Assembly: GCF_009873495.1 (NCBI RefSeq) | Contig: NZ_CP046703.1 | Location: 372,001 to 436,000, forward strand | Reading direction: 5' to 3' | DNA: 64,000 bases | Origin: Nostoc sp. ATCC 53789 | Lineage (GTDB): Bacteria > Cyanobacteriota > Cyanobacteriia > Cyanobacteriales > Nostocaceae | In this document: positions 41,785 to 57,352 of the stretch, piece after piece | Layout: every line of letters starts with the position of its first letter | How positions within the stretch are numbered: the stretch's first letter is position 1 | Notes under the pieces: generated by a model | Seen by the model: only the letters and a program-made list of their open reading frames with translations | Told to the model about the DNA's origin: nothing | Database searches by the model: none | Program-made: the position numbers and the translations under genes

Positions 41785-43389
41785 TCAGGCGATATTAATA
41801 TCATTCACACATTTGGACTTGAGATATTGCAAAACCTCTTGATATATCTGACTGCTAACGCGATCGCCCCTTCTACCATTCTCTAATTTAATATCATCAA
41901 CGAAGAAATTGAGCTTAAATTCAGCATAGGTAATCCCATCATCGCTATGATTTGTACCTTTGATTAAAACTTGTGGTTCTTGCCACTTTTGTCGCGGTTC
42001 TTTGAATCGTTCCCGAACCCATTTATTTAATTCCATTACATAATCATCAATCCGAGTTTCTTCACTTTGGGGATTAGAAATTTTTTGGTATAAACGCTGC
42101 GATCTTCGCTTGAGTAGATTAAGTTTACGTTCCCACTCTTCAGAAACCATGTAACTATCATTATCCAAGAGATTTGGATCGCGAATCCAGATGCGATACC
42201 ATTCCCGGACTAACTCAATCAACGAATCTTGAACTCTGATTTCTTGCAAGTTAAAAATAGTACGATTGTTTTGAGCTTCCGCAATTGCTTCTAACCCAAT
42301 CAAAGCTAGTATATCCTTATACTCCTGCTGTACATTATTAATTTCATCTTGAGTTAACCCACCCTTTTCGGCAAACTGGAGTGTAACAACTAGTGTTTCT
42401 AGTCCTATTTGAATCTCTTCTAATTTATAGTTAACTTCCTGTTCTGCAATTAAGCGCAATTTACCTATTTTTTGTTGTTCTGTTAGTTCATCAATTTGAT
42501 AGTAATCATCAAATATTTCTAATTTTTTATCAATATCTCCTAACGTATCTGGATGAGATAGAATAATTTTTACTATCATCTGTTTAGCTTCATACATATC
42601 GTACTTGACTAATACTTCTACCTGACTGGAGTGATGATAATAAGCTGTAGGACGGCTGAGGTTAATAATATTCTGGCTTTGTAAATTACTATTAGGAATA
42701 TAAATATTATAATGTTTGTCAGGTACATAAAGTTGCGTAACCCGTACACCAATTTTTCTTAGTATGGCAATAGAACCGTCCTCAAGTCGCAAAACATCAC
42801 CAAACTGGAAGGGTGTATCAATCAACAACACAACACCACTAAAGAAGTTTGCCAGGATGCCTTGAGCTGCAAAACCAATTACAAATGTCGCACCACCTAA
42901 AGCTACCCAAATACCAGTAAGATCGACTCCAAAGGAACGTAAAACCAAAAAAGCAGCTATCAAGTAAATTACAACAGGAACTACTGCTTCTAAGAGAGGT
43001 AGTAGCACATCGTCCCACATGGCTTCTGTTTGTTGAGTATACTGCTTCAGGTAATAGATAAAAACTTCAATAAAAATTTGTACTATCCAATAGCTAATTG
43101 ATATGATTATTCCGGCTGTTATGATATTCTCAAAGCTGTCAATCACTGTACCTGAAGGCAGACTCTCGAAGGTTAATTTTAGGACACCCAACACAAAAGT
43201 AGCTAGAGCCGGATAAGCCGAAACGTTAAGGGTAACTAGGGCAATATCTCGTTCAAATTTGCGAAAAATAGAACGCAATACATAAAATAAAATGACGTAA
43301 AGTAAAATGCCGCCAACAAATGTGATTAGTAAGCTACTCACAACGAAAGCCCAAGTATTTGTTTCAAATGGTAAAAATTTGTTTAGCAT
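41785..43389 (-). CDS. MscS-family mechanosensitive channel with long C-terminal domain
   Basis: 534 residues. About four to five membrane helices lie in the first 190 residues. The pore helix region is WVALGGATFVIGFAAQGILA with NFFSGVVLLIDTPFQFGDVL, followed by the beta domain (RLEDGSIAILRKIGVRVTQL, IYIPNSNLQSQNI). The C-terminal 300 residues are unusually long, charged and probably coiled, with repeated Glu/Leu-rich helices. It may respond to tension and to cytoplasmic partners. It is the last gene of the minus-strand run that includes the STAS/ATPase pair, about 190 bases after the STAS gene. Confidence 0.85.
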   Translation of the reverse strand: MLNKFLPFETNTWAFVVSSLLITFVGGILLYVILFYVLRSIFRKFERDIALVTLNVSAYPALATFVLGVLKLTFESLPSGTVIDSFENIITAGIIISISYWIVQIFIEVFIYYLKQYTQQTEAMWDDVLLPLLEAVVPVVIYLIAAFLVLRSFGVDLTGIWVALGGATFVIGFAAQGILANFFSGVVLLIDTPFQFGDVLRLEDGSIAILRKIGVRVTQLYVPDKHYNIYIPNSNLQSQNIINLSRPTAYYHHSSQVEVLVKYDMYEAKQMIVKIILSHPDTLGDIDKKLEIFDDYYQIDELTEQQKIGKLRLIAEQEVNYKLEEIQIGLETLVVTLQFAEKGGLTQDEINNVQQEYKDILALIGLEAIAEAQNNRTIFNLQEIRVQDSLIELVREWYRIWIRDPNLLDNDSYMVSEEWERKLNLLKRRSQRLYQKISNPQSEETRIDDYVMELNKWVRERFKEPRQKWQEPQVLIKGTNHSDDGITYAEFKLNFFVDDIKLENGRRGDRVSSQIYQEVLQYLKSKCVNDINIA

Positions 43390-43582
43390 TGTAGTAGTTT
43401 TATTGCTCTAATTTATAATTGTTTCATGACATTAAATTTATCTTAGATCAAAAGATAATGTTTAAAACCCTCATCAGATAAGGGCTTTAAATATTATAAA
43501 AGCTATGTAGTATAATAAGTACCGAAGAGCCTAAAAACTAACGTTCAACAGTAGCAATGCTTTAAGATTTTTAGTATATTTA

Positions 43583-43936
43583 TTATTCAATTTCGAGTTT
43601 GAGTCCAGGGAGTAAACGTTCTAGATTTTTCAAGGATTTTCCTTGCCAAGGCATAGTATTTGAACCTAAAACAAGCAACTGAATTCCTTTTTTCTTACGC
43701 AAGCTCAGGACAAATTTTGATAACATACTAATACCAGAACTATTGAGAAATGCTAAATCTCTTAAGTTCAAAGTCATCGTTGCAGGATCGGTTGCAGCAA
43801 TTTTATTGAGTAGATTGGTAATTGGTTCATATTCACTCGATCCCCCAAGGCTCAATTCTCCTTTAAAGTTGACTGTTGCAGAGTCTGTATCAGCTTCAAC
43901 GGTATAATCTCCATCTTTAATCTCTTGCAAAACCAT
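43583..43936 (-). CDS. STAS-domain protein (anti-sigma-antagonist type)
   Basis: 117 residues. VEADTDSATVNFKGELSLGG leads into the STAS fold, and the helix LNLRDLAFLNSSGISMLSKF carries the SSG site where phosphorylation occurs in SpoIIAA/RsbV-type proteins. It lies 51 bases downstream of a GHKL ATPase gene and near a PP2C phosphatase gene, the three parts of a partner-switching module. The target, a sigma factor, cyclase or other enzyme, is not identified here. Confidence 0.85.
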   Translation of the reverse strand: MVLQEIKDGDYTVEADTDSATVNFKGELSLGGSSEYEPITNLLNKIAATDPATMTLNLRDLAFLNSSGISMLSKFVLSLRKKKGIQLLVLGSNTMPWQGKSLKNLERLLPGLKLEIE

Positions 43937-43987
43937 AATATGTTCTTTTCCTAAATAAACAATGTTTGAATCAGATACCGACGAGTA

Positions 43988-44608
43988 CTATACCTTAAAT
44001 TGTGCCATTGTAGTTACGGCCATAATTATAGATTCTTGCTGAATAGTTTCTAATTTCCAACCAATTTTGGCTGAGTAGTCATTAATCATGGTTAATAGTC
44101 CTAAGCCAGAAGTTCCATTTTTTTCAGCGCTTTTTTCAACTTGATGCACAAACATTTCATGGGTATTTGAAGTTAAGATTTTTTCAATAACTGCCCTCAA
44201 TTTAGCTTCAGTTTCCAATTTAATACTATTGCTGGCGAAAATCACCGCAGTGACACTATCTGCGTTATTCAAAAAATGAATACCAATTCTTACTTTGTAG
44301 TTAGAACTATCATCATTAAACTTTATGGCATTTTCTAAAAGTTCGTTGGCGACATAGCTAACAGCACTTTTATTTTCTTTGATTATTTGTTCTTGATTTG
44401 GTTCATCTTCATCTACAGCTAAAAAGTTGGCAAAGTAGTCTGCAAAAAAATGTGCTGAAAGACGATTGCTACGCCAACGTTGTTTGATTGGGCGAGAACT
44501 GGGTGTAAAATAAAGTTCAAGAGAATCATGTTCTGGAGGAAAGTCAGAGATCAGATCACCAAATGATTCAGTTTTGATTATAGTAGAGACTGTAGATATT
44601 GGGAGCAT
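43988..44608 (-). CDS. GHKL ATPase, SpoIIAB/RsbW-like kinase
   Basis: 206 residues. The N-box YVANELLENAIKFNDDSSNY and a late glycine motif GTSGLGLLTMINDYSAKIG are those of Bergerat-fold ATPases. No H-box is present, so it is not a classical histidine kinase. By family, it should phosphorylate the STAS protein and release or bind it according to phosphorylation state. A DSLELYFTPSSRPIKQRWRS segment precedes the ATPase fold. A 375-base gap separates it from the phosphatase gene on the same strand. Confidence 0.82.
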   Translation of the reverse strand: MLPISTVSTIIKTESFGDLISDFPPEHDSLELYFTPSSRPIKQRWRSNRLSAHFFADYFANFLAVDEDEPNQEQIIKENKSAVSYVANELLENAIKFNDDSSNYKVRIGIHFLNNADSVTAVIFASNSIKLETEAKLRAVIEKILTSNTHEMFVHQVEKSAEKNGTSGLGLLTMINDYSAKIGWKLETIQQESIIMAVTTMAQFKV

Positions 44609-44983
44609 ACTTTTTTAATCTCAAAATAATTGTACATGAATGCAGGTTAAGCGCCAATAAGAAAAGTTTTAAAAGGTAAGAATTCAAAAGGCAGAATAGT
44701 TAAATAATCAAAAAAATTTTTATGAATAAATATATTAGGCATTCAAGATTTCTTATAAATTATGACTCTTGAATTCTGGATACTGAATTCTTATTTTAAA
44801 AATTGAATTTAATGATTTAATACCACAATTATGCAATGCCCAATAAGCTAAAATCTAAGTCGATGATCGTATAGCAGTTTTAAATCATTTTTTAAATAAA
44901 TTAACTGTAGAGGCACAGAGAGGAAATTGGAGATTTTCATGACTCATTTTGGATTGCTAGAGCATTTTTTATATTTGTCGATA
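44609..44983. other. Spacer between phosphatase and ATPase genes
   Basis: No gene seen. AT-rich, with several gaattc-containing words (44683, 44774, 44786) and a late segment (about 44880-44930) loosely similar to the dispersed repeat at 24709. Likely holds a promoter for the ATPase-STAS pair. Confidence 0.4.
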
Positions 44984-47077
44984 TTAACTTTCAGAGACTT
45001 CTTCCTGTCGCTTGAATACTAGCAATGTGATGTCATCAAATACTTTTTGTTTACCAATATGTCGTCGCACATCTAAAATTACTGCATCTTTAATTTCTGA
45101 TGCTGATTTGTGCCAGTTGTGACTGATTATTTCACATAACGGTTCAAGTCCGTATTGATTTTTATTGATGTCTTTGGCTTCGGTAATACCATCGGTGTAG
45201 AGGACAACCCCATCACCTGGTTGTAATTCCAGGGTTATATCGCTAATAAAATCAGTTATGTCATCATCTAAACCAATGGGGAAACCCAAGTCCATCGTGT
45301 CAATAAGCTCAATTTGCCCACCTTTGCGGATGATGATTGTTTCTTCGTGCTGTCCACTGATACTTATTTGCCCTTGAGCATAGTTGAGAATCACCAATGT
45401 CAAGTTCTTCTCAGAGTTCATCCGTTGCACGTTCTTACAGATGGTGCGGTTGAGTGTGTCAAAGAAGCGCACTGAATCAGATTCGCGGATTTCTTTGAGG
45501 AGGCGAACTGCTGTTTGTGTCATTAACATTAACAATCCACTTTCTAGTCCATGTCCAGTTACGTCTCCAATACCAAGAGTTACTACTCCGTCGGTGTGCA
45601 GTACATCGTAGTAATCGCCGCCGACTTCATCCGCAGCTTCCATAAAGCCAGCAATATCTAGTCCTTCAATAGCTTCTAGTTCTTCTGGTTTTGGGAGAAT
45701 CATCTGTTGCATTCGCCGAATTATATCGAGTTCGGCACTCATGCGGAGGTTTTCTCCTTTGAGTTTTTCATTGAGAATATTAATTTCTTCATTAGCTTCG
45801 GCTAGTTCAGCAGTGCGTTCTTGAACTTTAATTTCTAGATTGTGGGCATAATCTTCCAATTGCCGATAGGAAAGCATCAGATTTTTCCATAAAACCTGTA
45901 CAAGACCAATTATTAAGGCGCTGATAACAGTTAATAATGGTGTAAATACAGGAATTAACCAACCACCAAGAAAAGCAATGTAAGCACTGCTAAAAATAAT
46001 CACCACAGCTAGTAATAAACCACCTATGGTCAGCCAACGTTTTTTAATATAAATTGTGCCAAAGGTGGCACTGTATCCAGACCAAAAGATGATTAAGAAC
46101 CAGTTTAGAGGTTTAACGATAGCTCGCATCATTGGGCGGCCATCTATGGCGGCGCTGAGAATCTGACTGGTAAGATTTGCGTGAACTACTACTCCAGGGA
46201 CTAGCTCTGTAGGAAAAAATAAATTGCTATTGTAAGGTGTACTATAGCTATCATTTAAACTGGGAGCTTTTGCACCGATCAAAACTAGGCGATCGCGTAT
46301 AAAATTAGCAGGTATGCGATTTTCTAAAACATCGGTCATGGAAATATGAGGAAAGCTCTCTAGCCCACCTCGATAATTAATTAAAACTTGATATCCTCCC
46401 ATGTCAGCTTCGTTGTATTGCCCATCATTGCTAGATAGAGGTACAAACTTAGCTTTACCTAAACCGTAGATTTGTTTATCTGCGTTGATTGATTTTAATT
46501 CAATGCCTGCTTTTTCTAAATATATTAAGGCTAGTTTAACTCCTAGCCCTTGAGCTAAACTTTGATCGGGTTTACCTAATAAAATAATACCGCGTCGGAT
46601 TTTGCCATCTGTATCTAAGAGTAAGTCGTTGGCAGCTACTTGACTCTGTTTAGCTAAAATTGGTGGTGGTGCAACTGGTTTTCCGGCAACTTTTTCAATG
46701 CCAATAAAATTGGGAGTATTTTGAAATTCTTTGACGAGTTCTGCGTGTCCCGGTTCTACAGGTAAATCTCGATAAATATCGATGGCGATCGCTCTTGGTT
46801 GTTGTGCTTTGATATTGTGAATCATTTTCGCCATAACGCGATCGGACATCGGCCATTGCTTGACATATTGAATATCTGGCTCATCAATTGTGACAATCAC
46901 AATTCGTTTGTCTATAGCTTCTTGCGGACGAATACGAAATAATTGATCTAAAGTTACCCATTCTAAAATTCTAAAAACACCTATATTACTCCCTGCAATG
47001 ACCAATCCGGCAACACAGGGAGTAATTATCAGCGTTCCTTGCCATTTTTTAAGTGATTTTTTGAGTTTTTGCCACAT
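44984..47077 (-). CDS. CHASE2-domain PP2C (SpoIIE-type) phosphatase
   Basis: 697 residues. TM1 is at about 17-35, then an extracytoplasmic CHASE2 sensor (about 40-315: IVIVTIDEPDIQYVKQWPMS, AIAIDIYRDLPVEPG, DRLVLIGAKAPSLNDSYSTP). Three further membrane helices lie at about 325-400. A coiled coil (about 405-455) leads to the SpoIIE/PP2C domain, whose metal-binding acids are in DEVGGDYYD, GIGDVTGHGLESG and LYTDGITEAKD. It should dephosphorylate the STAS protein in response to an envelope signal. It starts six bases after the stop of the DUF928 gene, so it belongs to that transcript. Confidence 0.9.
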   Translation of the reverse strand: MWQKLKKSLKKWQGTLIITPCVAGLVIAGSNIGVFRILEWVTLDQLFRIRPQEAIDKRIVIVTIDEPDIQYVKQWPMSDRVMAKMIHNIKAQQPRAIAIDIYRDLPVEPGHAELVKEFQNTPNFIGIEKVAGKPVAPPPILAKQSQVAANDLLLDTDGKIRRGIILLGKPDQSLAQGLGVKLALIYLEKAGIELKSINADKQIYGLGKAKFVPLSSNDGQYNEADMGGYQVLINYRGGLESFPHISMTDVLENRIPANFIRDRLVLIGAKAPSLNDSYSTPYNSNLFFPTELVPGVVVHANLTSQILSAAIDGRPMMRAIVKPLNWFLIIFWSGYSATFGTIYIKKRWLTIGGLLLAVVIIFSSAYIAFLGGWLIPVFTPLLTVISALIIGLVQVLWKNLMLSYRQLEDYAHNLEIKVQERTAELAEANEEINILNEKLKGENLRMSAELDIIRRMQQMILPKPEELEAIEGLDIAGFMEAADEVGGDYYDVLHTDGVVTLGIGDVTGHGLESGLLMLMTQTAVRLLKEIRESDSVRFFDTLNRTICKNVQRMNSEKNLTLVILNYAQGQISISGQHEETIIIRKGGQIELIDTMDLGFPIGLDDDITDFISDITLELQPGDGVVLYTDGITEAKDINKNQYGLEPLCEIISHNWHKSASEIKDAVILDVRRHIGKQKVFDDITLLVFKRQEEVSES

Positions 47078-47083
47078 TATTCT

Positions 47084-48214
47084 TCAAAAAGCGTCTGTCA
47101 ATGGTTGAGAGGCAATATTTTCTAGTCCAACTTGCTTGAGTAAATCGTGCCATTCAGTAGCGAAAGCTTTATTATTTGGTTGCGATCGCTTTGCCGCCGC
47201 TAAAATTTTTAGGGTATCATACCATACACCAGCCTCAGCATATTTAGTGGCTAATTCCACAGGAGATGAGGCTAACTCCTGCTCATTAAATGTAGCCTTG
47301 ACTCGTTTTATCCACCCTGTTACAGAATAATTATCAGGTCGGAGAATTCCGCCTGGTTCAATAGGTGCAAAATACCACAGGTAATTTTTATCTATTACTA
47401 AAGGTGGTGCTGCTGGAGGTAACGTAATACTAACTACACCACCATCGGGAGGAACTTTTAGCATTGTCGAATAATGGGGATTTCCGTCTTCGTCTTGGAG
47501 GCTGAAAAATACGGTTTCTGCGCCAACTGGAGGCAAATAGACAAAAATTGTGGGGCTTGCTAATACAGTGCGTCCCTGTTTGGTAGGGGGAACTAATGCT
47601 GTTAATGGTGCAGTTTTTCCCCTTGTACCACCACCGATGCTGCTTCTGGGGGTTGAATTTCCACTAGGTAGAGTCAATTGCACATCACCCCTGGTTCCGC
47701 CGCCAACGCTGGTTTTAGGTGTTGAACCTCCTGGTAAAGCAAATTGCACATCGCCCCTGGTTCCGCCGCCAACGCTGGTTTTAGGTGTTGAACCTCCGGG
47801 TAAAGCAAATTGCACATCGCCCCTGGTTCCGCCGCCAACGCTGGTTTTAGGTGTTGAACCTCCGGGTAAAGCAAATTGCACATCGCCCCTGGTTCCGCCG
47901 CCAACGCTGGTTTTAGGTGTTGAACCTCCGGGTAAAGCAAATTGCACATCACCCCTGGTTCCGCCGCCAACACTGGTTCTAGGTGCTGAACCTCCGGGTA
48001 AGGTGAATTGGACTTGTCCGCGAACGCCACCGCCAACACTGGTTTTGGGGGCTGCATCGTTGGGAAATTTAAATTCCACACTAATGAGAACTTGATTGGT
48101 AACAGTTGGTTTCTCTTGATAGAGAAGGCTTGCTAATGTAGAATTGCTTGTCAAAACTATTAATGTGCCGCTAATAGTGAAAAATAAAAATATTTTAGAA
48201 TTAAACTTAACCAT
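47084..48214 (-). CDS. DUF928 secreted protein with 22-residue tandem repeats
   Basis: About 376 residues. ATG 48214 follows aggtgag; a GTG two codons earlier (48220) is the alternative. A signal peptide (FFTISGTLIVLTSNSTLAS) precedes a repeat region of seven GGG(T/V)RG units with a period of 22 residues (66 nt). The four central units are nearly identical: VGGGTRGDVQFALPGGSTPK. The conserved DUF928 domain follows (RTVLASPTIFVYLPPVG, TLPPAAPPLVIDKNYLWYF, VTGWIKRV). The family is often found beside CHASE2 and CHAT genes in cyanobacteria; its function is unknown and it is probably periplasmic. Confidence 0.85.
   Translation of the reverse strand: MVKFNSKIFLFFTISGTLIVLTSNSTLASLLYQEKPTVTNQVLISVEFKFPNDAAPKTSVGGGVRGQVQFTLPGGSAPRTSVGGGTRGDVQFALPGGSTPKTSVGGGTRGDVQFALPGGSTPKTSVGGGTRGDVQFALPGGSTPKTSVGGGTRGDVQFALPGGSTPKTSVGGGTRGDVQLTLPSGNSTPRSSIGGGTRGKTAPLTALVPPTKQGRTVLASPTIFVYLPPVGAETVFFSLQDEDGNPHYSTMLKVPPDGGVVSITLPPAAPPLVIDKNYLWYFAPIEPGGILRPDNYSVTGWIKRVKATFNEQELASSPVELATKYAEAGVWYDTLKILAAAKRSQPNNKAFATEWHDLLKQVGLENIASQPLTDAF
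47640..48040. repeat. 66-bp coding tandem repeat in the DUF928 gene
   Basis: The word ctggttccgccgccaac recurs at 47691, 47757, 47823, 47889 and 47955, a strict 66-bp period. Diverged copies lie at both edges. Near-identity of the central units points to recent expansion. Confidence 0.92.
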
Positions 48215-48234
48215 ACTCACCTCTTATGCTACGT

Positions 48235-50880
48235 TTACAACCAATTACCGACAAGAACGAAAGAAGACCAAAAATAAGGATGTTTGTATAAAGGATTAGC
48301 CATAATTTTGATTTGTGCCTGTTGCAATGCCTCAGCTTTGTTTAGTTTTTGATTACTCAATTGGTGATAAAATTCTTTCATTAAGGAGGAAGTAGACTCA
48401 TCACTTACTGACCATAAACTAGCAAGAGTACTTTTAGCACCAGAACGCAAAGCAAATCCAGCTAAACCTAAAGTTGCACGATTATCACCTACGGCTGTTT
48501 GACAAGCACTCATCACTAATAATTCAATCGGTTCTACGTTTGTTTGACTTCTGTTTTTAAACAAAAGATCAAAATCTTGAATGGAAATGCGATCACCCCA
48601 GGTCAACAAAAAGGTTTCTTCTGGGTTGGAACTGAATTGACCGTGAGTAGCAAGGTGAACTATGGGGAAAGATTTATTAGCGATCGCCGCTTTTAAACTG
48701 TCTCTGCTAAACTTCTTATCTAGCAACACTTGGGAATTAACTTCTGTCGTAACTTCTTTAATTTCTTCTGTAACTCCAGGTAGGGGATTGAAGCCTTGGC
48801 GTGCTTCCGTTAATCCAGCCGCTAACACGCTCAATTTTTGGCGTTGCAGTCCTTGAGGAAATAGTTGTAATCCAGGACTGAGAACAACACTATAATTTTC
48901 GATTAAATACTGTTTGCCATCATACAGAACAGCCATTGGCAAGTTTCGCAATAAACTATCTGGAATGAAAACTAAAGTTTTGATATTACTTTTCTGGAGT
49001 GTTGCTTGAGCAGGTGCAACCAGCCAGTTATAAATTTCTTGGGAGAGTCGCAAACGCTCGTTACTGGGATAACCAGGGGATAGGGAAGAATAAAGTTGTT
49101 TTAAGGTAGCTTCTATTTGCTGTTTTGGTAGTTGGGTGCTGTAGTGACGCAGAGGTTGATTAGGAACTGAAAGAATGACTTCCAGGCGATCGCTTAAAAT
49201 AATTGGATAAATAACGGCTGCGTGCAAGTCAATTTTTTCTAAAACTACAGGATTGCTATTATCTAAGCAAGCATCCCGAAAAAAGTTATCCAGTTCCGCT
49301 AGTTGCAAAGCTTCCATCACTTGCAGAGCTTGTTTAAGGTTGCTTTGATTATCTTTTTGCAACAACAAGCTGACGTAATCTCGATAAATCGGTTCAACAC
49401 TTTCTTTAAAATTAAACTGTACATCCCTGTTAATTGCCACTAAATCACTACGTAGTGATTGCAAGTTATTAAAAGCAATCTCATAAGCAGGGATGGCGCT
49501 ATTACTATCTCCTTGTTCTTTAGCAATTGCCCCCACCTGTCCCGCCGCACGAGCTACTAAATCTGGAGCATTTATTTCTTGAGCTATTGTTAGTGCTTGT
49601 TGTGTCAAAGTTGCCGCATCTGCCAACTGGTTATTTTCTTGGTAGAGTTTACCTAGTTGGTTAAGTGAATAAGCTTCGGCTCTCGGATCTTTGATTTCTT
49701 TAGCTTGTTGAATAGCTGTTGCTAGCAAGTGGGAAATTTTAACGGCGTTGGTGTCCAAAAGTGCTTTTATACCTTCTCCTGCTGGCTTTAAATCCATCAA
49801 ACTTTCTGCAAAGTTAATCTTGGCGTAAATAGCCGGACGACTAGGAGGAAGTTGAGCAAGATTAGTTTCTATTTCTGGAATTAATGCTTGTGCTGATTCC
49901 CCGTTTTGTACTTTAACTAACAAGCTTAATTGATTTAATTGTGCTTCTAATTTAGCCTGTGCTTCTGAAGCTAAATTAACTGCTTGTTGGTAGTATGTCC
50001 AAGCAACATCATATTCTTCTAAGTCTCTGGCAATATTGCCAATACTAAATAAAACTGCACTCACATCAGTTGGAGAGTTAAATTGTTTACTAATTTGCCA
50101 ACTTTTATCGAGAATTATTTTAGATTGTTTTAAATCACCAACAGTTTGCAAAGCAATGCCTAAACTTCTCAATCCTTGAGCCTTTAAAAGACTGTCAGGT
50201 TGATTTTGCAATTCTGTCACAAGTTCTTCTAACAAAGTTTTGGCGCGGCGATATTGTCCAAGTGTTTGCAAACCTTGCGCCTGATTAATTTGACTGATGA
50301 GTTTACCTGTTTTATCACCTGTGCGCTCATAAGTGACTGCTGCTTGTTTCCAAGTATCTATAGCTGTATCAGTTTGTCCTTGCAGAAGTTGAAGAGTTCC
50401 TTGTGTATTTAATGCCTGTGCTAATAGTAAAGTACTTTTAGTATCGGGATTTTTGAAGTTTTTTATAATATTAATACTTTCAACGATCGCAGTATGTGCT
50501 TGGGGAATTTTGCCTAAATCTTTATATGCCAATCCTAAATAATTAAGCACTTGAACTTGGCTAATAGTTTCGTTTTGTGATTGATAAAACTTTAGTGCAT
50601 TTTCCCAGACTCTAGCTGCTTCTGTGTATTGTCCAGATTGATAGTATTTTTTTCCTTGCTGTAATAATTCTGAAGAGTTTGGTCGTTGTTTCACTACCTG
50701 CTCTGAACCTAATAATATAGGTTCATTAGCAACAGCAGGAATGTTCTTGATGATTAATAAAAAACTTAATATTATACAAGCAAAAAAAAGCCATAAAACA
50801 TTATTTTTCTGGTTTGAAAATAACCAAAATCGTTTTTTGTTTAAATTATTGTACCTCTTTGCCCTGGATAGTTTTTTCAA
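48235..50880 (-). CDS. TPR-CHAT protein (caspase-like protease)
   Basis: 881 residues. A membrane anchor or signal (VLWLFFACIILSFLLIIKNI) is at about 28-48. About ten TPR-type repeats span about 70-480 (for example SGQYTEAARVWENALKFYQS and VLNYLGLAYKDLGKIPQAHT). The C-terminal CHAT domain has the catalytic His in VHLATHGQFSSNPEETFL and the catalytic Cys in LLVMSACQTAVGD. CHAT proteases are separase/caspase relatives. The apparent start is TTG 50880. It lies 14-20 bases upstream of the DUF928 gene and 72 bases downstream of the haemagglutinin gene. The substrate is unknown. Confidence 0.88.
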   Translation of the reverse strand: MKKLSRAKRYNNLNKKRFWLFSNQKNNVLWLFFACIILSFLLIIKNIPAVANEPILLGSEQVVKQRPNSSELLQQGKKYYQSGQYTEAARVWENALKFYQSQNETISQVQVLNYLGLAYKDLGKIPQAHTAIVESINIIKNFKNPDTKSTLLLAQALNTQGTLQLLQGQTDTAIDTWKQAAVTYERTGDKTGKLISQINQAQGLQTLGQYRRAKTLLEELVTELQNQPDSLLKAQGLRSLGIALQTVGDLKQSKIILDKSWQISKQFNSPTDVSAVLFSIGNIARDLEEYDVAWTYYQQAVNLASEAQAKLEAQLNQLSLLVKVQNGESAQALIPEIETNLAQLPPSRPAIYAKINFAESLMDLKPAGEGIKALLDTNAVKISHLLATAIQQAKEIKDPRAEAYSLNQLGKLYQENNQLADAATLTQQALTIAQEINAPDLVARAAGQVGAIAKEQGDSNSAIPAYEIAFNNLQSLRSDLVAINRDVQFNFKESVEPIYRDYVSLLLQKDNQSNLKQALQVMEALQLAELDNFFRDACLDNSNPVVLEKIDLHAAVIYPIILSDRLEVILSVPNQPLRHYSTQLPKQQIEATLKQLYSSLSPGYPSNERLRLSQEIYNWLVAPAQATLQKSNIKTLVFIPDSLLRNLPMAVLYDGKQYLIENYSVVLSPGLQLFPQGLQRQKLSVLAAGLTEARQGFNPLPGVTEEIKEVTTEVNSQVLLDKKFSRDSLKAAIANKSFPIVHLATHGQFSSNPEETFLLTWGDRISIQDFDLLFKNRSQTNVEPIELLVMSACQTAVGDNRATLGLAGFALRSGAKSTLASLWSVSDESTSSLMKEFYHQLSNQKLNKAEALQQAQIKIMANPLYKHPYFWSSFVLVGNWL

Positions 50881-50952
50881 ATTAATCCTATTTTTTACAT
50901 AAAATAATCTATTTAGTTATCTTACAAGGATAAATTATTAATTTTTGAAAGT

Positions 50953-53900
50953 TTATAAATCGCTACAATTAGGATGCTTTTGAGATAAACTCTCTTGAGG
51001 TAAAGATGCTATTAATTCTATTTGTCCTTGGGCATTAATTCTCAAGCTTGTGGCTTCGACAATTTGTTGTCTTATTGGAGTAATTGTAGAAGAACTATTT
51101 ACTTGATTACTGTTTTGTGTTTGTGCAGTTATAAAATCTCGCGTATCTGACAATATAGTTTGACCACGAATGGTTGCTGTAGGGTCTGCTGGTAAACCTC
51201 CCCTACCTGTCACAGTAAAAGAATTACCTTCTGTGGATGCACAACTAGGAGTAACTATTTTATTATTGCGATCGCTCTCTGGGTTTGGTACTCCTATCAA
51301 AGCCGAACTTGGAGCTGCATTCGGTTTATTAATTGATTCAAGGCTAGAAAAATCTAACACAGGATTAGGAATTTCCGGTGGAGGACTAAGAACTTCTGGT
51401 GGAGGATTGGGAACTTCCGGTGGAGGATTAGGAATTTCCGGTGGAGGACTAGGAACTTCTGGTGGAGGACTAGGAACTTCTGGTGGAGGACTAGGAACTT
51501 CTGGTGGAAGATTGGGAACTTCTACTTTTTTGGCGCTAGAAGTAATATTACTGAAAGGGGTGAGTGTATCAGCAAACCCGATTCCTTGAATCTCTCTGGT
51601 AGTAATATTAATATTGCCACCACTACCTAAGAATGCATTGGCTGTAATATCACTGTTTTCTTCGGGAACAGCAAACAGTAAATCTGTGTTGATAGTGATG
51701 TTAGCACCATTTCCACCTGTAGTTTCATTACCTGCGATCGCCAAAATACTACTTCCACGGCGTAATGATAACGAATCTGTTAACTGGAGATTAATATTAC
51801 CGCCTTCAGTGCTGACTGTTTTTGTGGAAATTAGAGCTTGATTATCAAGGGTTAATTGGTTTCCTTGGATCTCAATGTTGCCACCAATCCCACTACCTTG
51901 GCTAATGGTGGAAATAGCAGCACCATCCCGAATCTCAACTTGTTGGGAATCGACAAAGATATTACCGTTGTTACCGCTAGAACCCAAACTTGTATTAGCA
52001 AATAAACCCGTATTTGCACCAGACAAGAGAACTCTGTTTGTAGCTTTGACTACTATATTACCAACATTTCCTAAACCTTCTGTTCGAGAAAATATCTGAC
52101 TATTATTAGTAGCAACAAAGGAGCTAGTATTAATTTCTATATCACCAGCTTTCCCTGCACCTATACTCTGGCTTCCTATATTTGAGTTATTTAATAAAAT
52201 TGAATTAGCATTAATAATGATATTGCTAGCATTACGACGATTACTTATGGTGAATAATTTAGCTTGGTTAGCTTCTAAAGAATTAGTAGTAATGATCAGC
52301 TTTCCATCTGTCCTTGTTATACTTCTACCCAAAGAAATCAATGGTGCGTTTAGCGTTACATCACCGCCTTGTCCAGCACCAAAGGAAAAACTACCAATAA
52401 ATGACTCTCTAAGTGGAGCTTGTTCTTGAATAATTGCAGATTTACTGTTGAGAGTAATGTTACCTCCATCTGTACCAAAAGAAATAATTCGTGATGATGG
52501 TGGCATGACAATATCATCCTGAGCTAAAAGTGTGATATCTCCACCAGGTTTTAAGAATGGAAATGTAGAATAATCAATTCCCAAACTCGTCAGAAATTGG
52601 GGAGTAATAATTTTCCCCCGTGAATCAATGATAATGTTTCCTGTCTTTGCACCCCTACCAAATGTGCTTAGTGCAAAGTTAACTCTAATATCACCCGATA
52701 GAGAAGAATTAGGTTGATACTGATTGGTTAAAAAAACCAGTCCTCCCGAATTGATAATTTGATTGATAGTGATATCTGCGCTTGTTGGTTTACCATCTGT
52801 GCTAGGAGTAGGTGAAAAAGCATTGATTACTCCTTTGATTCCAGTTGGCTGAAAATTAGTAGTTCCCGCTCTAATATCAACAGTAGGTTGAGCGCTGCCA
52901 TTAATGATAACCTGCGTTAATCCATCGGAAAGAGTAACTGTTTCGTTAATAAAGTTAGTTGTATCAGGACGGTTCACGTTAATATTATTGATTCTTACAC
53001 TTCCACCTGCAAAAATATGAATGGAATCTCCTGTATAACTATTAAAATTAACATCTCCACTTGAACGAATAATTGGGTCGTTAAAGCTAAATAAATCTCC
53101 TTCTTGCCCGTTAATTTGTTCGAGGTTAAAATTACCACCACTAAAAAATTGAGTGTCCCCACTAATCGCATTGGCTGAACGGAAAACCATATTTCCACCA
53201 GAAAAGAAGCCACTGGAGGGATCATTTAAGGCAAAGATATCTATCTTATTTCCTTCAGCTAACAGTTGCTGTTTAGCTGAGGCAATGAAAGGGTAATTTA
53301 GGTTGTCCCGCACTTTTAGAGTATTACTAGCTTGCAAGGTTAAATTACTACCTGCTTGCAATTGCCCTTGTAAGTCAATATTTGTACCAACTAAAGTCAA
53401 GTTTTGTCCAACTGATAAATTACCACTGTTAGCGATCGCACCTTGGGGCGCTAACCAACTTTCTAACCCCGGAGGAACATTGACAGTTAACAAGGGGGGT
53501 GCTTTAGGATCTTGAGTAGTAAATTGATAACCGTTTTTGAACAAAAGAGCGTTGCTGGTGCTAGCAAAGAAAGAACCAGAGATATCCAAACGCGCATTTG
53601 TACCGAAAATTATGCCGTTAGGATTAATTAAGTAAAGATTGGCATTTCCTAATACTCCGAGTCTACCGAAAATATTAGAAGCGTGGTTTCCTGTAACTCG
53701 ACTCAGGATATTTTCGACTCCAGAAGGATTAGAAAAGTAAACCCGTTGCTGATTACCTACATTAAAATCTTGAAAACTGTGGAATAGGTTACTACCTCGA
53801 ATTGCTCCGCCATCTATGCGATCAATGTTACCTTTGGTACTTTGAACATTAGGTGAAAGAACAGAGCGTTCGACTCCCAAACTTTCATCAGCAGCTATTT

Positions 53901-53973
53901 GAGCTACAGCAGTTGTTGTTGAACTCAGAATACAGGCGATCGCAGCACTGCTTGTTAAAATTTTCATCAGCAT
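50953..53973 (-). CDS. Filamentous-haemagglutinin-type secreted protein
   Basis: 1006 residues. A signal peptide (ILTSSAAIACILSSTTTAVA) precedes the two-partner-secretion domain. This contains SNLFHSFQDFNVGNQQRVYF, LSRVTGNHASNIFGRLGVLG and NLYLINPNGIIFGTNARLDI, including the NPNGI and N-x-x-L-x-N signatures. A beta-helical body of repeated G-D/N-I strands runs to about residue 830. Then come eight heptad-like proline-rich units (VPSPPPE type, DNA 51369-51520) and a C-terminal region with two or three Cys. The gene starts at ATG 53973, or 53967. No TpsB/ShlB-type transporter gene is seen in the window. It heads the CHAT-DUF928-CHASE2 operon. Confidence 0.88.
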   Translation of the reverse strand: MLMKILTSSAAIACILSSTTTAVAQIAADESLGVERSVLSPNVQSTKGNIDRIDGGAIRGSNLFHSFQDFNVGNQQRVYFSNPSGVENILSRVTGNHASNIFGRLGVLGNANLYLINPNGIIFGTNARLDISGSFFASTSNALLFKNGYQFTTQDPKAPPLLTVNVPPGLESWLAPQGAIANSGNLSVGQNLTLVGTNIDLQGQLQAGSNLTLQASNTLKVRDNLNYPFIASAKQQLLAEGNKIDIFALNDPSSGFFSGGNMVFRSANAISGDTQFFSGGNFNLEQINGQEGDLFSFNDPIIRSSGDVNFNSYTGDSIHIFAGGSVRINNINVNRPDTTNFINETVTLSDGLTQVIINGSAQPTVDIRAGTTNFQPTGIKGVINAFSPTPSTDGKPTSADITINQIINSGGLVFLTNQYQPNSSLSGDIRVNFALSTFGRGAKTGNIIIDSRGKIITPQFLTSLGIDYSTFPFLKPGGDITLLAQDDIVMPPSSRIISFGTDGGNITLNSKSAIIQEQAPLRESFIGSFSFGAGQGGDVTLNAPLISLGRSITRTDGKLIITTNSLEANQAKLFTISNRRNASNIIINANSILLNNSNIGSQSIGAGKAGDIEINTSSFVATNNSQIFSRTEGLGNVGNIVVKATNRVLLSGANTGLFANTSLGSSGNNGNIFVDSQQVEIRDGAAISTISQGSGIGGNIEIQGNQLTLDNQALISTKTVSTEGGNINLQLTDSLSLRRGSSILAIAGNETTGGNGANITINTDLLFAVPEENSDITANAFLGSGGNINITTREIQGIGFADTLTPFSNITSSAKKVEVPNLPPEVPSPPPEVPSPPPEVPSPPPEIPNPPPEVPNPPPEVLSPPPEIPNPVLDFSSLESINKPNAAPSSALIGVPNPESDRNNKIVTPSCASTEGNSFTVTGRGGLPADPTATIRGQTILSDTRDFITAQTQNSNQVNSSSTITPIRQQIVEATSLRINAQGQIELIASLPQESLSQKHPNCSDL
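51369..51520. repeat. 21-bp coding repeat (proline-rich units)
   Basis: On the plus strand the word tccggtggaggattagga and its variants recur with a 21-bp period. They encode PPPEVPS-type units in the haemagglutinin gene and look like a linker or cell-wall-spanning segment. Confidence 0.85.
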
Positions 53974-54919: not shown

Positions 54920-57352
54920 ATGAAATTGAATTTTACGAAACACATTGAAGATATCCAATTACTGCATGTAGAACGATATCTCCCAGAAAAGATAAGAACT
55001 TACATTGAAGAAAATTACTATGCCAAAGTTCAGCAGCAAGCAGAGTTAGATTATGCTGTTAGAGATGAAAATTTTCTAGCAAATCCCCTTCAGCACGTCG
55101 CACTTTATTCGGATCATGGTGTCGTTCATGTCAGAGATGTTGCTTGTAATATCTTAGTTGTGCTGGAAGCTATTCATGGAGTTCTCATTCCCAAAAGAGA
55201 GTCTCTATGGTTTGATTTTATGAAAGGTTATGGAATCATACTTGTCTATAACCATGATATGGGAATGCTTGATTTTTCGCCATTTGGCCGGGCGATGCAC
55301 CCAGAATTTGTTACTCAAGAAGTATTTAGTTCTGCTTTTGATCAGGTAATTGATACGATTTGGACTGAAAATTGTGGCAATGTTTCTTGGCGTTTAATTA
55401 ACTTAGCTGATAAAGGAGCATTGACAGAAGATCCTCAACTTGTGTTACGTGAAATGGTATCATTGGGAGTTGCTCATAGTAAAAGCAAAGTTCCTATTGA
55501 GGTATTGAATAATCCTCAACAATTCAGAGAGTTAATGAGAGAAATTGCTTCGGTTAATTTGTATCACCTTTATTACCAACAACAAATAACTAAAGCCGAA
55601 AATCAATTATCTCATGCGAAAAAATCTTTCCAACAACAGCTTAAAATTGAAAAACTAGAAGTAGCTTTACAGCAAATTAAAGCTACTCAGACAGAATTTC
55701 TTAAACAGGGAATTAGCCCTCATAACGAACGTATTCATAGATATTATACTGACTTTGAAAAACAGGCATTTTCCTGGCTGGTTTGTGAGCATCCAGAGGT
55801 ACAAGCTTTAATTGCTGATGTGGGTGATACTATCCGTGCTTTGCGGGCAGCAGATGCTTTGCGACAGAGAGGTACAGTTTACAAAACATCAGGAGGTTAT
55901 CAGATTTTTGTTGACCAAAATACAGCTAAGGCGATTTATGCTTTGCAAAAAGGCAGTGGTGAATTATTTTTATTAGAAGCAGCAAACCCTCTCAATGCTG
56001 GAGAAGCAAACATTGCCAGTAGTGAATTGACTGCTAACGGCGATATCAGAATATCTTTCAATCGAGGTTCATTTACTAACCAAGATGCTACACAACGAGC
56101 AGCTTACTATTTAGCTATTGTAATTGACGATATTCAACGCGATATTATCGATACCTTTCATCGATCGCCTGATGACAATGATGTAATTAAGAAAAGTGAA
56201 AATATTGAAATTTTATTAGAAAATACTGATGACAACCTAGATTTTGCCGAAGCTGTCCAAGCAGAATTAAAAAAAATCGCGCCAGAAATAGGGTTGAAGA
56301 GTAGAGTTGTTCCCTCACTCAAAAATATTGACCCAGAGGAACGCGATCGCTATTTGAGTGCCAAAGAGCTAGATTGGTCACTGGAACAAAAACAAAAAAT
56401 TCTATTGAGAGTTTCTCAATCGGGCCATAAAATTCACAATATTGATCCACACAAAGCTTTTACTGATGTGTACTTATCCAGCCTTGAAGCAGGTGAAACA
56501 TTGATCCAAGCAGGATCGCCTCCTGGTTTTGTTTATATTCCTATGGGTATAGGACTCGTAAGTAACCCATTAGGCGGGTATCAACCCCAATGTGTAAAAC
56601 CTTGGATTCCGTTAGGTAATATCCGGGTTATTCGTGGAGATCAGCAGGAAGCAACTATTACGGCTGAAGAGAAACTTGAACTTCTCATCATTCCTAAAGA
56701 GACTTACCTGAAATATTGGCACAACACTTATAATGCAGAAGAATTTTCGCAACAAATCGTGCGTATTTACGCCGAAGATAATTTGCGAGAGTTAGAGCAG
56801 ATTTTTAACATTCTCCGCCAAGTTGCCCTGATTGATAAAAATCTGGATGACACTGAAGTTGACTTCATTCAACAAATGCTGGATTCTTACCGAATTAAGT
56901 ATTCCACTGAAGAACTTCGAGAAAAGTTGTTAACTGGTGAAGATAGCGATTTTGTTAGTTTACGGCAAAGCGTACTAGATTATCTCTCGTTAGAGCCACC
57001 ATATTTTCAGGTGGGAAGGCTACGAGATTTATTAAATTTACTAGTAAAAATTGACGAAAATATTTCAGCAGAAGAATCGCTGATTATGTCAGAGTTAAAT
57101 AATTTACTGGATAGTTATCTAGCAGATGAAACCTTGCCAAAGCAGTACAAGATATTGATTATTCCCACTAATTCTGAGCAAAATGAAGGGATTAGAGCAA
57201 TATTTCCCACTGCCCCCAAAGTTGAAAATCCTTGGGGAAAAGCTTATCTATGCGGTTCGTTTTACTCGAAAGAATACGCCAATATGATTTTGCAGAGATA
57301 TCGCAATTTGAATTTCTACGCCATTCTAGAAGAAGAGGAATATTCAGCATGA
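54920..57352 (+). CDS. HD-domain / cyclic-nucleotide-binding-like / TerB-like protein
   Basis: 810 residues. The N-terminal domain (about 50-330) has His66, His70, the HD pair His112-Asp113 (YNHDMGMLDFSPFG) and a late Asp in LRAADALRQRG, the pattern of HD phosphohydrolases. Residues about 215-260 are coiled coil. A domain at about 515-625 has LEAGETLIQAGSPPGFVYIP and EKLELLIIPKETYLKYW, resembling a Crp-type cyclic-nucleotide-binding fold. The C-terminal 130 residues (VALIDKNLDDTEVDFIQQML, LLVKIDENISAEESLIM) look like TerB. It may be a nucleotide-regulated phosphohydrolase; the substrate is unknown. Its stop overlaps the ATG of the nucleoside hydrolase (ATGA). Confidence 0.7.
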   Translation: MKLNFTKHIEDIQLLHVERYLPEKIRTYIEENYYAKVQQQAELDYAVRDENFLANPLQHVALYSDHGVVHVRDVACNILVVLEAIHGVLIPKRESLWFDFMKGYGIILVYNHDMGMLDFSPFGRAMHPEFVTQEVFSSAFDQVIDTIWTENCGNVSWRLINLADKGALTEDPQLVLREMVSLGVAHSKSKVPIEVLNNPQQFRELMREIASVNLYHLYYQQQITKAENQLSHAKKSFQQQLKIEKLEVALQQIKATQTEFLKQGISPHNERIHRYYTDFEKQAFSWLVCEHPEVQALIADVGDTIRALRAADALRQRGTVYKTSGGYQIFVDQNTAKAIYALQKGSGELFLLEAANPLNAGEANIASSELTANGDIRISFNRGSFTNQDATQRAAYYLAIVIDDIQRDIIDTFHRSPDDNDVIKKSENIEILLENTDDNLDFAEAVQAELKKIAPEIGLKSRVVPSLKNIDPEERDRYLSAKELDWSLEQKQKILLRVSQSGHKIHNIDPHKAFTDVYLSSLEAGETLIQAGSPPGFVYIPMGIGLVSNPLGGYQPQCVKPWIPLGNIRVIRGDQQEATITAEEKLELLIIPKETYLKYWHNTYNAEEFSQQIVRIYAEDNLRELEQIFNILRQVALIDKNLDDTEVDFIQQMLDSYRIKYSTEELREKLLTGEDSDFVSLRQSVLDYLSLEPPYFQVGRLRDLLNLLVKIDENISAEESLIMSELNNLLDSYLADETLPKQYKILIIPTNSEQNEGIRAIFPTAPKVENPWGKAYLCGSFYSKEYANMILQRYRNLNFYAILEEEEYSA

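What the first reader, a model, noticed from the sequence alone, without database searches (positions are those of the whole stretch)
43583..53973. Candidate system: partner switching coupled to a CHAT protease and a secreted adhesin
On one strand lie adhesin, TPR-CHAT protease, DUF928 and CHASE2-PP2C phosphatase, with gaps of 6-72 bases between the last four genes, then a GHKL kinase and a STAS protein. The phosphatase has an envelope sensor. The CHAT catalytic His and Cys are intact and the protein is membrane-anchored. A plausible circuit: an external signal activates the phosphatase, the STAS protein is dephosphorylated and switches partners, and a caspase-like protease processes or controls surface proteins (adhesin, DUF928), perhaps in adhesion, self-recognition or cell death. 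The families are known, but this combination has no assigned function that I know of.
Basis: partly seen in the sequence, partly recalled or inferred. Interest (0 to 1): 0.72.

Follow-up and report, generated by a model that had tools for sequence, protein, structure and literature searches.

The report
Adhesin-linked envelope receptor with swapped outputs
A cyanobacterial gene cassette pairs a secreted sticky protein and a caspase-like protease with an export signal to a membrane receptor whose internal signalling part has been exchanged repeatedly in evolution; here that part drives a phosphatase switch, so the surface proteins look more like the sensor than the target.

Summary
The genes are real, at the stated coordinates, and the order is conserved. 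TPS adhesin, TPR-CHAT and DUF928 carry export signals, so they should lie outside the cytoplasm with the CHASE2 sensor; phosphatase, kinase and STAS are inside. Across cyanobacteria the outside set recurs while the receptor's output changes: 59 DUF928-linked CHASE2 receptors carry cyclase, N-terminal CHAT, two histidine-kinase types, PP2C, GGDEF or Ser/Thr-kinase outputs. PP2C receptors as one clade are rejected (p-AU 2.4e-6). DUF928 and CHASE2 co-diverge beyond within-genome shuffles (0 of 5000). Single-frame TPS-CHAT fusions and TpsB-TPS-CHAT runs tie CHAT to adhesin secretion; 48 of 51 adhesins in these loci end in a cysteine-pair 'hook', missing from four of five fusions. Here PP2C is wired to an slr1658/slr1659 kinase-STAS pair, with an MscS channel gene next door. 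I read it as an outside-in contact or envelope receptor cassette. Topology, linkage, swapping and motifs are computed; protease substrate, ligand and channel gating are inferred. Structure prediction failed.

The parts
50953..53973 (-). TPS adhesin (FHA-type), 1006 aa; N-terminal hydrophobic signal; C-terminal cysteine pair with 95 and 3 residues after each cysteine
   Evidence: Pfam TPS 157.4 bits; NCBIfam adhes_NPXG 90.6; cysteine pair
48235..50880 (-). TPR-CHAT, 881 aa; N-terminal signal/anchor near residues 26-44, TPR, C-terminal CHAT 611-879 with intact His and Cys
47084..48220 (-). DUF928 protein, 378 aa; N-terminal hydrophobic signal, 22-aa tandem repeats, C-terminal DUF928 domain 196-374
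44984..47077 (-). CHASE2 receptor with PP2C/SpoIIE output, 697 aa; hydrophobic segments 16-34, 344-362, 375-393 around the CHASE2 domain
   Evidence: metal-binding Asp columns invariant in 39 of 39 PP2C domains
43988..44608 (-). slr1658-family kinase (DUF6272), 206 aa; N-box NELLEN and SGLGLLT
43583..43936 (-). slr1659-superfamily STAS protein, 117 aa, phospho-acceptor-type motif FLNSSG
41785..43389 (-). MscS-type channel, 534 aa; candidate effector of the STAS protein
   Evidence: Pfam MS_channel_2nd 46.4 bits; follows STAS in 7 of 31 distinct kinase loci, window included, once with a small ORF between
43461..43491 (-). terminator-like hairpin (14 pairs, 3 of them G-C) between STAS and MscS
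   Evidence: 13 such sites in the stretch against 9.3 +- 3.3 in shuffles, so weak
44629..44657 (-). promoter-like site before the kinase
   Evidence: 35 such sites against 41.1 in shuffles, so weak

Best explanation
The window holds one version of a cyanobacterial envelope-receptor cassette. Recurrent part, outside the cytoplasm: a TPS adhesin exported by a TpsB pore encoded elsewhere in this genome and perhaps held at the surface by a C-terminal cysteine-pair hook; a periplasmic (or exported) TPR-CHAT protease that most likely acts on the adhesin or its hook; and DUF928, most likely the periplasmic partner of the CHASE2 sensor. CHASE2 passes the state of this assembly (adhesin engaged, stalled or cut) through the membrane. 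Variable part, inside: the output enzyme and its relay partner. Here the output is PP2C, which dephosphorylates the slr1659-type STAS protein against its slr1658-type kinase; free STAS then acts on an effector, best guess the neighbouring MscS channel. Computed: gene identity, topology signals, conserved order, output swapping, co-divergence, fusions, cysteine pair. Inferred: CHAT substrate, DUF928-CHASE2 contact, sign of the signal, STAS-MscS contact.
For: Order TPS > TPR-CHAT > DUF928 > CHASE2-X in the window and in paralogous or distant loci. Outputs of 59 DUF928-linked receptors with near-complete CHASE2: cyclase 16, N-terminal CHAT 12, HK 9, PP2C 8, GGDEF 5, HisKA_3 3, Ser/Thr kinase 2, cyclase+HK 1, none assigned 3 (16 receptors besides the window's were run through Pfam). 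Outputs move with a relay: CHASE2-HK followed by a second HK gene in 6 of 9, CHASE2-HisKA_3 by a LuxR-type regulator in 2 of 3, CHASE2-PP2C by the kinase in 5 of 8. CHASE2 tree of 30 rows: PP2C (5 rows) as one clade rejected, p-AU 2.4e-6; an HK receptor is sister to a PP2C receptor (98/89). CHASE2-DUF928 co-divergence 0.62 against 0.145 +- 0.095 for within-genome shuffles, 0 of 5000. CHAT tied to TPS export: five TPS..CHAT single frames, four with signal-peptide-like N termini by eye, two of them right after CHASE2-cyclase > DUF928 (L077, L079) (Pfam); TpsB within two genes of TPR-CHAT on one strand in 8 loci (three of these checked with Pfam). Hook: 48 of 51 adhesins. Kinase > STAS in 26 of 31 distinct loci.
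Against: No interaction, localisation or activity was tested; topology rests on hydrophobicity and charge only (4 of 70 TPR-CHAT come out N-out, 3 tied). Co-divergence shows co-inheritance and could reflect linkage alone; nearest rows agree in only 26 of 54, and the CHAT correlations (0.55, 0.38) lie not far above the highest free shuffles (0.47, 0.36). TPS, DUF928 and CHASE2 are all near CHAT in only 6 of 40 CHAT-anchored loci and 8 of 40 had none of them within three genes; 25 of 60 DUF928 loci had no CHASE2 near. Kinase-STAS follows CHASE2-PP2C only in Nostocaceae in this sample, and 3 of 8 CHASE2-PP2C genes lack it. MscS relatives occur in 12 relatives; 10 of these have no kinase match and in the other 2 it is on another contig, and elsewhere the gene after STAS is as often a cyclase (6 of 31), so MscS as target is weak. 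In a second receptor class CHAT is N-terminal to CHASE2, hence presumably cytoplasmic, so CHAT is not always outside. Structure prediction failed.
Confidence: 0.5

Rival explanations
1. Adhesin maturation only: CHAT trims or releases the TPS adhesin at the surface, and the CHASE2 system, co-located because it regulates the same surface programme, senses something else and controls when the adhesin is made. No signal flows from adhesin or CHAT to CHASE2.
For: TPS-TpsB-CHAT runs in which no DUF928 or CHASE2 was found within four genes on the strand exist (L063, L155, L161); a TPS-CHAT fusion occurs in L184, a locus fetched for its kinase. 31 of 62 CHASE2-DUF928 pairs have no CHAT within four genes.
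Against: CHAT co-diverges with CHASE2 (0.55) and more weakly with DUF928 (0.38) in 25 cassettes; order within the cassette is kept while the output changes. CHAT co-divergence was not given the within-genome control.
Confidence: 0.25
2. One reading: outside signal -> CHASE2-PP2C -> STAS partner switch -> CHAT protease -> adhesin and DUF928.
For: Genes adjacent on one strand; partner-switch parts present with intact motifs.
Against: CHAT is predicted on the other side of the membrane from STAS; the same surface set occurs with non-partner-switch outputs.
Confidence: 0.05
3. Self-recognition or cell-death module: CHAT is an executioner caspase at the cytoplasmic face, the adhesin a recognition molecule and the switch a trigger.
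For: CHAT domains act as triggered proteases elsewhere (Csx29/Craspase, recalled); CHAT fused N-terminally to CHASE2 in 12 receptors, cytoplasmic by layout, suggests that CHASE2-triggered cytoplasmic proteases exist.
Against: The window's CHAT has an export signal; PADLOC gave only a TPR model (44 bits) and BovA (22.5 bits); Csx29 model 23 bits against a cut-off of 300.
Confidence: 0.08
4. Loose neighbourhood: large cyanobacterial genomes carry many adhesin, CHAT and sensor genes, and the cluster has no joint function.
For: The genome holds 15 TPS genes by my merging of 16 matches and 29 places matching the TPR-CHAT query, some by TPR alone; 8 of 40 CHAT loci had none of the partners within three genes.
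Against: Kept order, single-frame fusions, 5 of 6 DUF928 genes beside CHASE2, co-divergence under within-genome shuffles.
Confidence: 0.12

Closest known systems
SiaABCD of Pseudomonas aeruginosa (PMC7647112, PMC8457831; passages seen)
   Same: PP2C phosphatase, kinase and small STAS-like phosphoprotein that acts on a partner protein; biofilm theme
   Different: SiaA, SiaB and SiaC models all score below cut-off here; the STAS profile matches SpoIIAA, not SiaC; no diguanylate cyclase next door; a linked adhesin, CHAT and DUF928 are not part of SiaABCD as far as I recall
slr1658/slr1659 of Synechocystis (slr1658 mutant: iron-limitation recovery, reported in PMC7555055; passages seen)
   Same: Same kinase and STAS families (NCBIfam over cut-off), adjacent in 26 of 31 distinct kinase loci
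   Different: I found no published receptor or effector in the 4 papers listed (passages of two read); here it sits behind a CHASE2-PP2C receptor and an adhesin cassette
LapA/CdrA-LapD-LapG adhesin retention (recalled)
   Same: Adhesin held by a C-terminal retention element; periplasmic cysteine protease; inner-membrane receptor
   Different: LapG is not a CHAT protease; LapD signals inside-out from c-di-GMP, whereas here the receptor's outputs are inside, suggesting outside-in
HetF of Anabaena (PMC8406250; passages seen)
   Same: Cyanobacterial protein with CHAT, TPR and one predicted TM segment
   Different: HetF's CHAT domain is N-terminal (aa 1-555); here an N-terminal export signal, then TPR, then CHAT at the C terminus
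WD40-CHASE2-DUF928 cluster of Nostoc punctiforme (PMC5587647; passages seen)
   Same: CHASE2 close to DUF928
   Different: Noted in one of 7 surveyed cyanobacteria, beside WD40 genes; the text does not contain the word CHAT

Membership tests
slr1658/slr1659 partner-switch pair | kinase over the slr1658 NCBIfam cut-off | tested here: met
   241.8 bits, cut-off 200
slr1658/slr1659 partner-switch pair | adjacent STAS over the slr1659 cut-off with phospho-acceptor motif | tested here: met
   152.3 bits, cut-off 100; N65, S66, G68 invariant in 22 of 22 aligned rows
SiaABC(D) | SiaA, SiaB, SiaC models over cut-off | tested here: not met
   SiaA 59.4 vs 700, SiaB family 28.8 vs 85, SiaC 17.7 vs 24.5
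SiaABC(D) | phosphorylation of the STAS-like protein decides effector binding | not testable with these tools
   needs protein work
Two-partner secretion adhesin (TpsA) | TPS domain and export signal | tested here: met
   157.4 bits, adhes_NPXG 90.6, N-terminal hydrophobic stretch
Two-partner secretion adhesin (TpsA) | TpsB partner | tested here: inconclusive
   ShlB matches exist in this genome (9 pieces) but none inside the window; which one serves this adhesin is unknown. TpsB lies beside TPS-CHAT in other loci
CHAT protease | CHAT domain with His-Cys dyad | tested here: met
   219.3 bits; His and Cys in 81 of 81
CHAT protease | proteolytic activity | not testable with these tools
   bench only
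Csx29 / Craspase TPR-CHAT | Csx29 model over cut-off | tested here: not met
   23 bits vs 300
HetF | N-terminal CHAT domain | tested here: not met
   CHAT at 611-879 of 881; HetF CHAT aa 1-555 from PMC8406250
LapD/LapG retention system | LapG-type protease and c-di-GMP receptor | tested here: not met
   no such Pfam match among the cassette proteins at E <= 0.01; what defines the system is recalled

The most novel reading that the evidence does not exclude
A bacterial counterpart in logic to proteolysis-based contact receptors: an adhesin held by a C-terminal cysteine hook is cut, when engaged, by an exported caspase-like CHAT protease, and a DUF928-CHASE2 receptor reads the result and passes it to any of several interchangeable outputs; in this Nostoc-type genome it gates an MscS-type channel through an slr1658/slr1659 partner switch.
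Probability: 0.2. Interest if true: 0.85.

Novelty: new variant of a known kind. Interest (0 to 1): 0.62.

Why it matters
CHAT proteins, TPS adhesins, DUF928 and CHASE2 sensors are common in filamentous cyanobacteria, and in the searches made I found no assigned joint function for them. If the reading is right, DUF928 gets a testable role (periplasmic partner of CHASE2), a caspase-like protease is placed outside the cytoplasm in an adhesin pathway and not in cell death, and one input cassette is seen wired to seven kinds of output, a natural experiment in receptor rewiring. It also gives the slr1658/slr1659 pair a receptor and candidate effectors.

Tried and rejected
(2) SiaABC membership, on cut-offs. 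(3) Defence or CRISPR-type CHAT, on PADLOC and Csx29 scores. (4) MscS as a certain part: of 12 relatives with an MscS match, 10 have no kinase match and the other 2 have it on another contig, so it is kept only as a candidate.

Sampling limits: the 60 DUF928 loci were picked by hand from the listed, best-scoring rows (further rows were not listed); the 40 CHAT loci from the ranked rows, skipping places already held; the 20 kinase loci from the top rows. L039 and L044 (97-98% to the window's phosphatase) and L042 (84%, short contig) were dropped from the CHASE2 trees and co-divergence but count among the 8 PP2C receptors; rows with a DUF928 stretch under 140 aa or partial CHASE2 were dropped from co-divergence. 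Loci cut by contig ends were not removed before adjacency counts. In adjacency counts 'TPS' includes an adhesin-stalk match where no TPS match was near. The clade tests were chosen after the quick tree had been seen, so their p-values are optimistic. One of the eight labels is 'none'.


Full report
WHAT IS THERE. The window is G000:C1:372001-436000 of an 8.65-Mb genome; the closest named matches to its phosphatase are in Desmonostoc muscorum FACHB-395 and Nostoc sp. WHI (98% and 97%). All six ORFs of the finding were confirmed on the minus strand with gaps of 72, 14, 6, 375 and 51 bases and identified with Pfam and NCBIfam. The kinase belongs to the slr1658 family and the STAS protein to the slr1659 superfamily, both over cut-off. 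An MscS-type channel gene follows 193 bases downstream, after a terminator-like hairpin.

TOPOLOGY. The window's adhesin, TPR-CHAT and DUF928 proteins each have an N-terminal hydrophobic segment; kinase and STAS have none. Of 72 TPR-CHAT proteins of at least 750 aa, 68 have a hydrophobic segment starting in the first 75 residues. With a slightly different window, 70 have a segment and 63 of these are N-in/C-out by the positive-inside rule, 4 N-out, 3 tied. Of 107 DUF928 ORFs, 88 have such a segment (start codons were taken mechanically, so this is approximate). These are sequence heuristics, not a trained predictor.

CONSERVATION. The full run is in Nostoc sp. WHI (L041), Desmonostoc (L044) and Cylindrospermum (L043); it is partial, cut by contig ends or decayed in L039, L040, L042, L045 and L046. 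None of the 22 other genomes called same genus gave a full-length match to the CHASE2-PP2C protein, so this version is patchy. The wider order TPS > TPR-CHAT > DUF928 > CHASE2-X recurs in distant genomes. DUF928 was found in 95 of 117 cyanobacterial genomes and 0 of 14 control genomes; TPR-CHAT relatives at E <= 1e-60 in 65 of 117, with only the 8 best candidates per genome scored; the kinase at E <= 1e-10 in 37 of 117. In 40 CHAT-anchored loci, TPS (or adhesin stalk) lay within three genes on the same strand in 24, DUF928 in 21, CHASE2 in 12, any of them in 32, all three in 6; DUF928 was the next gene downstream in 18 and TPS the next upstream in 14. In 60 DUF928-anchored loci, CHASE2 was near in 35, CHAT in 9, TPS in 6. 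In this genome 5 of 6 DUF928 genes are beside one of only 9 CHASE2 matches.

OUTPUT SWAPPING. I found 62 distinct CHASE2 ORFs within two genes of DUF928 on the same strand, 59 of them with near-complete CHASE2. Their outputs are: cyclase 16, N-terminal CHAT 12, HisKA/HATPase 9, PP2C 8, GGDEF 5, HisKA_3 3, Ser/Thr kinase 2, cyclase plus HK 1, unassigned 3; 16 receptors besides the window's were run through Pfam (4, 10, 2). The PP2C rows include near copies of the window's gene (L039, L044). The output travels with a relay: a second HK gene after CHASE2-HK in 6 of 9 (the one tested, in L055, has receiver and ATPase domains), a LuxR-type regulator after HisKA_3 in 2 of 3, the kinase after PP2C in 5 of 8. 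On the CHASE2 tree of 56 rows the eight labels (one of them 'none') need 14 changes, the least possible being 7. On a careful tree of 30 rows five labels need 8 changes, the least possible being 4; holding the five PP2C rows as one clade is rejected (p-AU 2.4e-6), and an HK receptor (L071) is sister to a PP2C receptor (L069) at 98/89; holding the four PP2C rows other than L070 together is not clearly rejected (p-AU 0.059). These tests were chosen after the quick tree had been seen. On the PP2C-domain tree (quick, one very long row) CHASE2-borne domains need 5 changes as labelled, 2 forced by starred branches; one row labelled 'other', L046's 288-aa piece, is the PP2C part of a broken CHASE2-PP2C gene, so the 5 is somewhat too high. 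PP2C modules were probably acquired more than once. A recurrent outside part with exchanged inside parts is best explained if the outside part is the input.

CO-DIVERGENCE. CHASE2 and DUF928 patristic distances correlate at 0.61 over 54 pairs. To remove species history, DUF928 partners were shuffled only within genomes: 34 rows, 12 genomes, observed 0.62, shuffled 0.145 +- 0.095, 0 of 5000 as high. CHASE2-CHAT is 0.55 (highest of 2000 free shuffles 0.47) and DUF928-CHAT 0.38 (highest 0.36) over 25 cassettes; these two lack the within-genome control. Nearest rows agree in 26 of 54, so the match is far from perfect.

CHAT AND ADHESIN SECRETION. Five single frames hold both TPS and CHAT: L079, L077, L075 and L184 with signal-peptide-like N termini by eye, and L064 with a glycosyltransferase domain in front (Pfam). 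In L077 and L079 the fusion follows CHASE2-cyclase > DUF928 directly. TpsB genes lie within two genes of TPR-CHAT, uninterrupted on one strand, in 8 loci (L063, L112, L122, L145, L155, L161, L163, L174); L122 holds TpsB > TPS > CHAT > DUF928 > CHASE2-HK in one run. Of 51 TPS adhesins of at least 600 aa in the fetched loci (not all beside CHAT, some near copies), 48 have exactly two cysteines in the last 180 residues, a median 97 apart (range 36-123), the second a median 4 residues from the end, with 0.27 cysteines per protein between residue 40 and that tail; the first often begins a motif like C...F.V.GRGGLP. Four of the five fusions lack the GRGG motif and end in CHAT, and in L079, L075 and L184 the only cysteine is the catalytic one. 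This recalls the retention hooks of HMW1 and CdrA (recalled, not checked). I did not sample adhesins away from these loci, so the hook may be general to cyanobacterial TPS proteins.

PARTNER SWITCH. Kinase > STAS is adjacent in 26 of 31 distinct kinase loci, PP2C within two genes upstream in 20 of 31 (one of these a 98-aa fragment); downstream neighbours are MscS in 7 of 31 (window included, once after a small ORF), a cyclase in 6 of 31 (once after a small ORF), GGDEF and HK once each (the totals are my count of that table). The kinase N-box is invariant in 18 of 18 and the STAS N, S and G in 22 of 22; PP2C metal-binding positions are invariant in 39 of 39. The STAS profile finds SpoIIAA first (E 0.0019) and no entry named SiaC up to E = 1. 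So it works like SiaABC but is not a member by these models; it is a member of the slr1658/slr1659 pair.

MECHANISM. Adhesin state at the surface -> CHAT/DUF928 -> CHASE2 -> PP2C -> STAS dephosphorylation -> effector (MscS the best local guess). Only the parts, their sides of the membrane (by heuristic), their linkage and the swapping are shown here.

LITERATURE. One held paper names DUF928; it notes a WD40-CHASE2-DUF928 cluster in Nostoc punctiforme and an acid-responsive DUF928 protein, sll1891 (PMC5587647, passages). No held paper joins CHAT domain, filamentous hemagglutinin and cyanobacteria; of 7 that join CHAT domain and cyanobacteria I read passages of one, on HetF, and saw the rest as a listing only. 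The library is open-access only, so absence there is weak evidence. An slr1658 mutant recovers poorly from iron limitation (PMC7555055, passages).

VERDICT. A new arrangement of known domains with a clear, testable logic.

Noticed in passing
window 47676-48001: DUF928 protein carries 66-bp (22-aa) tandem repeats, 4.9 copies, 97% matches; copy number differs among close relatives (fewer in L044 and L041, more in L043).
   Followed up: partly
window 51361-51523: 21-bp tandem repeats (7.8 copies) encode a proline-rich stretch near the adhesin's C terminus.
   Followed up: no
L078, L086, L091, L094, L096, L107, L112, L117, L118, L126, L128, L167: CHAT fused N-terminally to CHASE2 with DUF928 next downstream in 12 of 12, His and Cys kept: a possible receptor-triggered cytoplasmic CHAT protease. 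DUF1822 within two genes upstream in 5 of 12 (L078, L094, L112, L126, L128).
   Followed up: partly
L060:6992-12001 (own genome): Sigma-70-region-4-like protein (just below Pfam cut-off) > DUF1822 > TPR-CHAT on one strand; the sigma-like/DUF1822 pair also in L096, L107, L126 and L138.
   Followed up: no
L064:5542-10623: One open frame of 1693 aa with glycosyltransferase 2, TPS and CHAT domains in the window's own genome.
   Followed up: no
L061 and L063 (own genome): TPS-CHAT loci with Ser/Thr kinase-TPR genes on the opposite strand nearby.
   Followed up: no
window 44609-44983: The 375-base gap before the kinase is mostly missing in Desmonostoc L044 (70 bases) and enlarged by a palindromic-looking insertion in Nostoc WHI (599 bases).
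   Followed up: partly
L045, L046: Apparently decayed cassettes: CHAT and DUF928 remain as fragments in Microseira; CHASE2 and PP2C lie in two overlapping frames in Amazonocrinis while kinase, STAS and MscS frames are whole. Described only.
   Followed up: no
L039, L040, L041: Nostoc sp. WHI has the same block on three contigs with different ORFs further downstream of MscS: recent amplification or an assembly effect.
   Followed up: no
L043:7329-8519: IS605/TnpB-type gene lies between CHAT and DUF928 in Cylindrospermum.
   Followed up: no
L166 and L175 (G112:C7): TPS > CHAT > DUF928 and, about 13 kb on, HAMP-PP2C > kinase > STAS > two MscS genes behind two DctP binding proteins; a nucleoside-hydrolase gene also lies there, as near the window's cassette.
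   Followed up: partly
window 54920-57352: 810-aa protein, divergent from the adhesin, with only a weak cyclic-nucleotide-binding match below cut-off and no NCBIfam hit.
   Followed up: no
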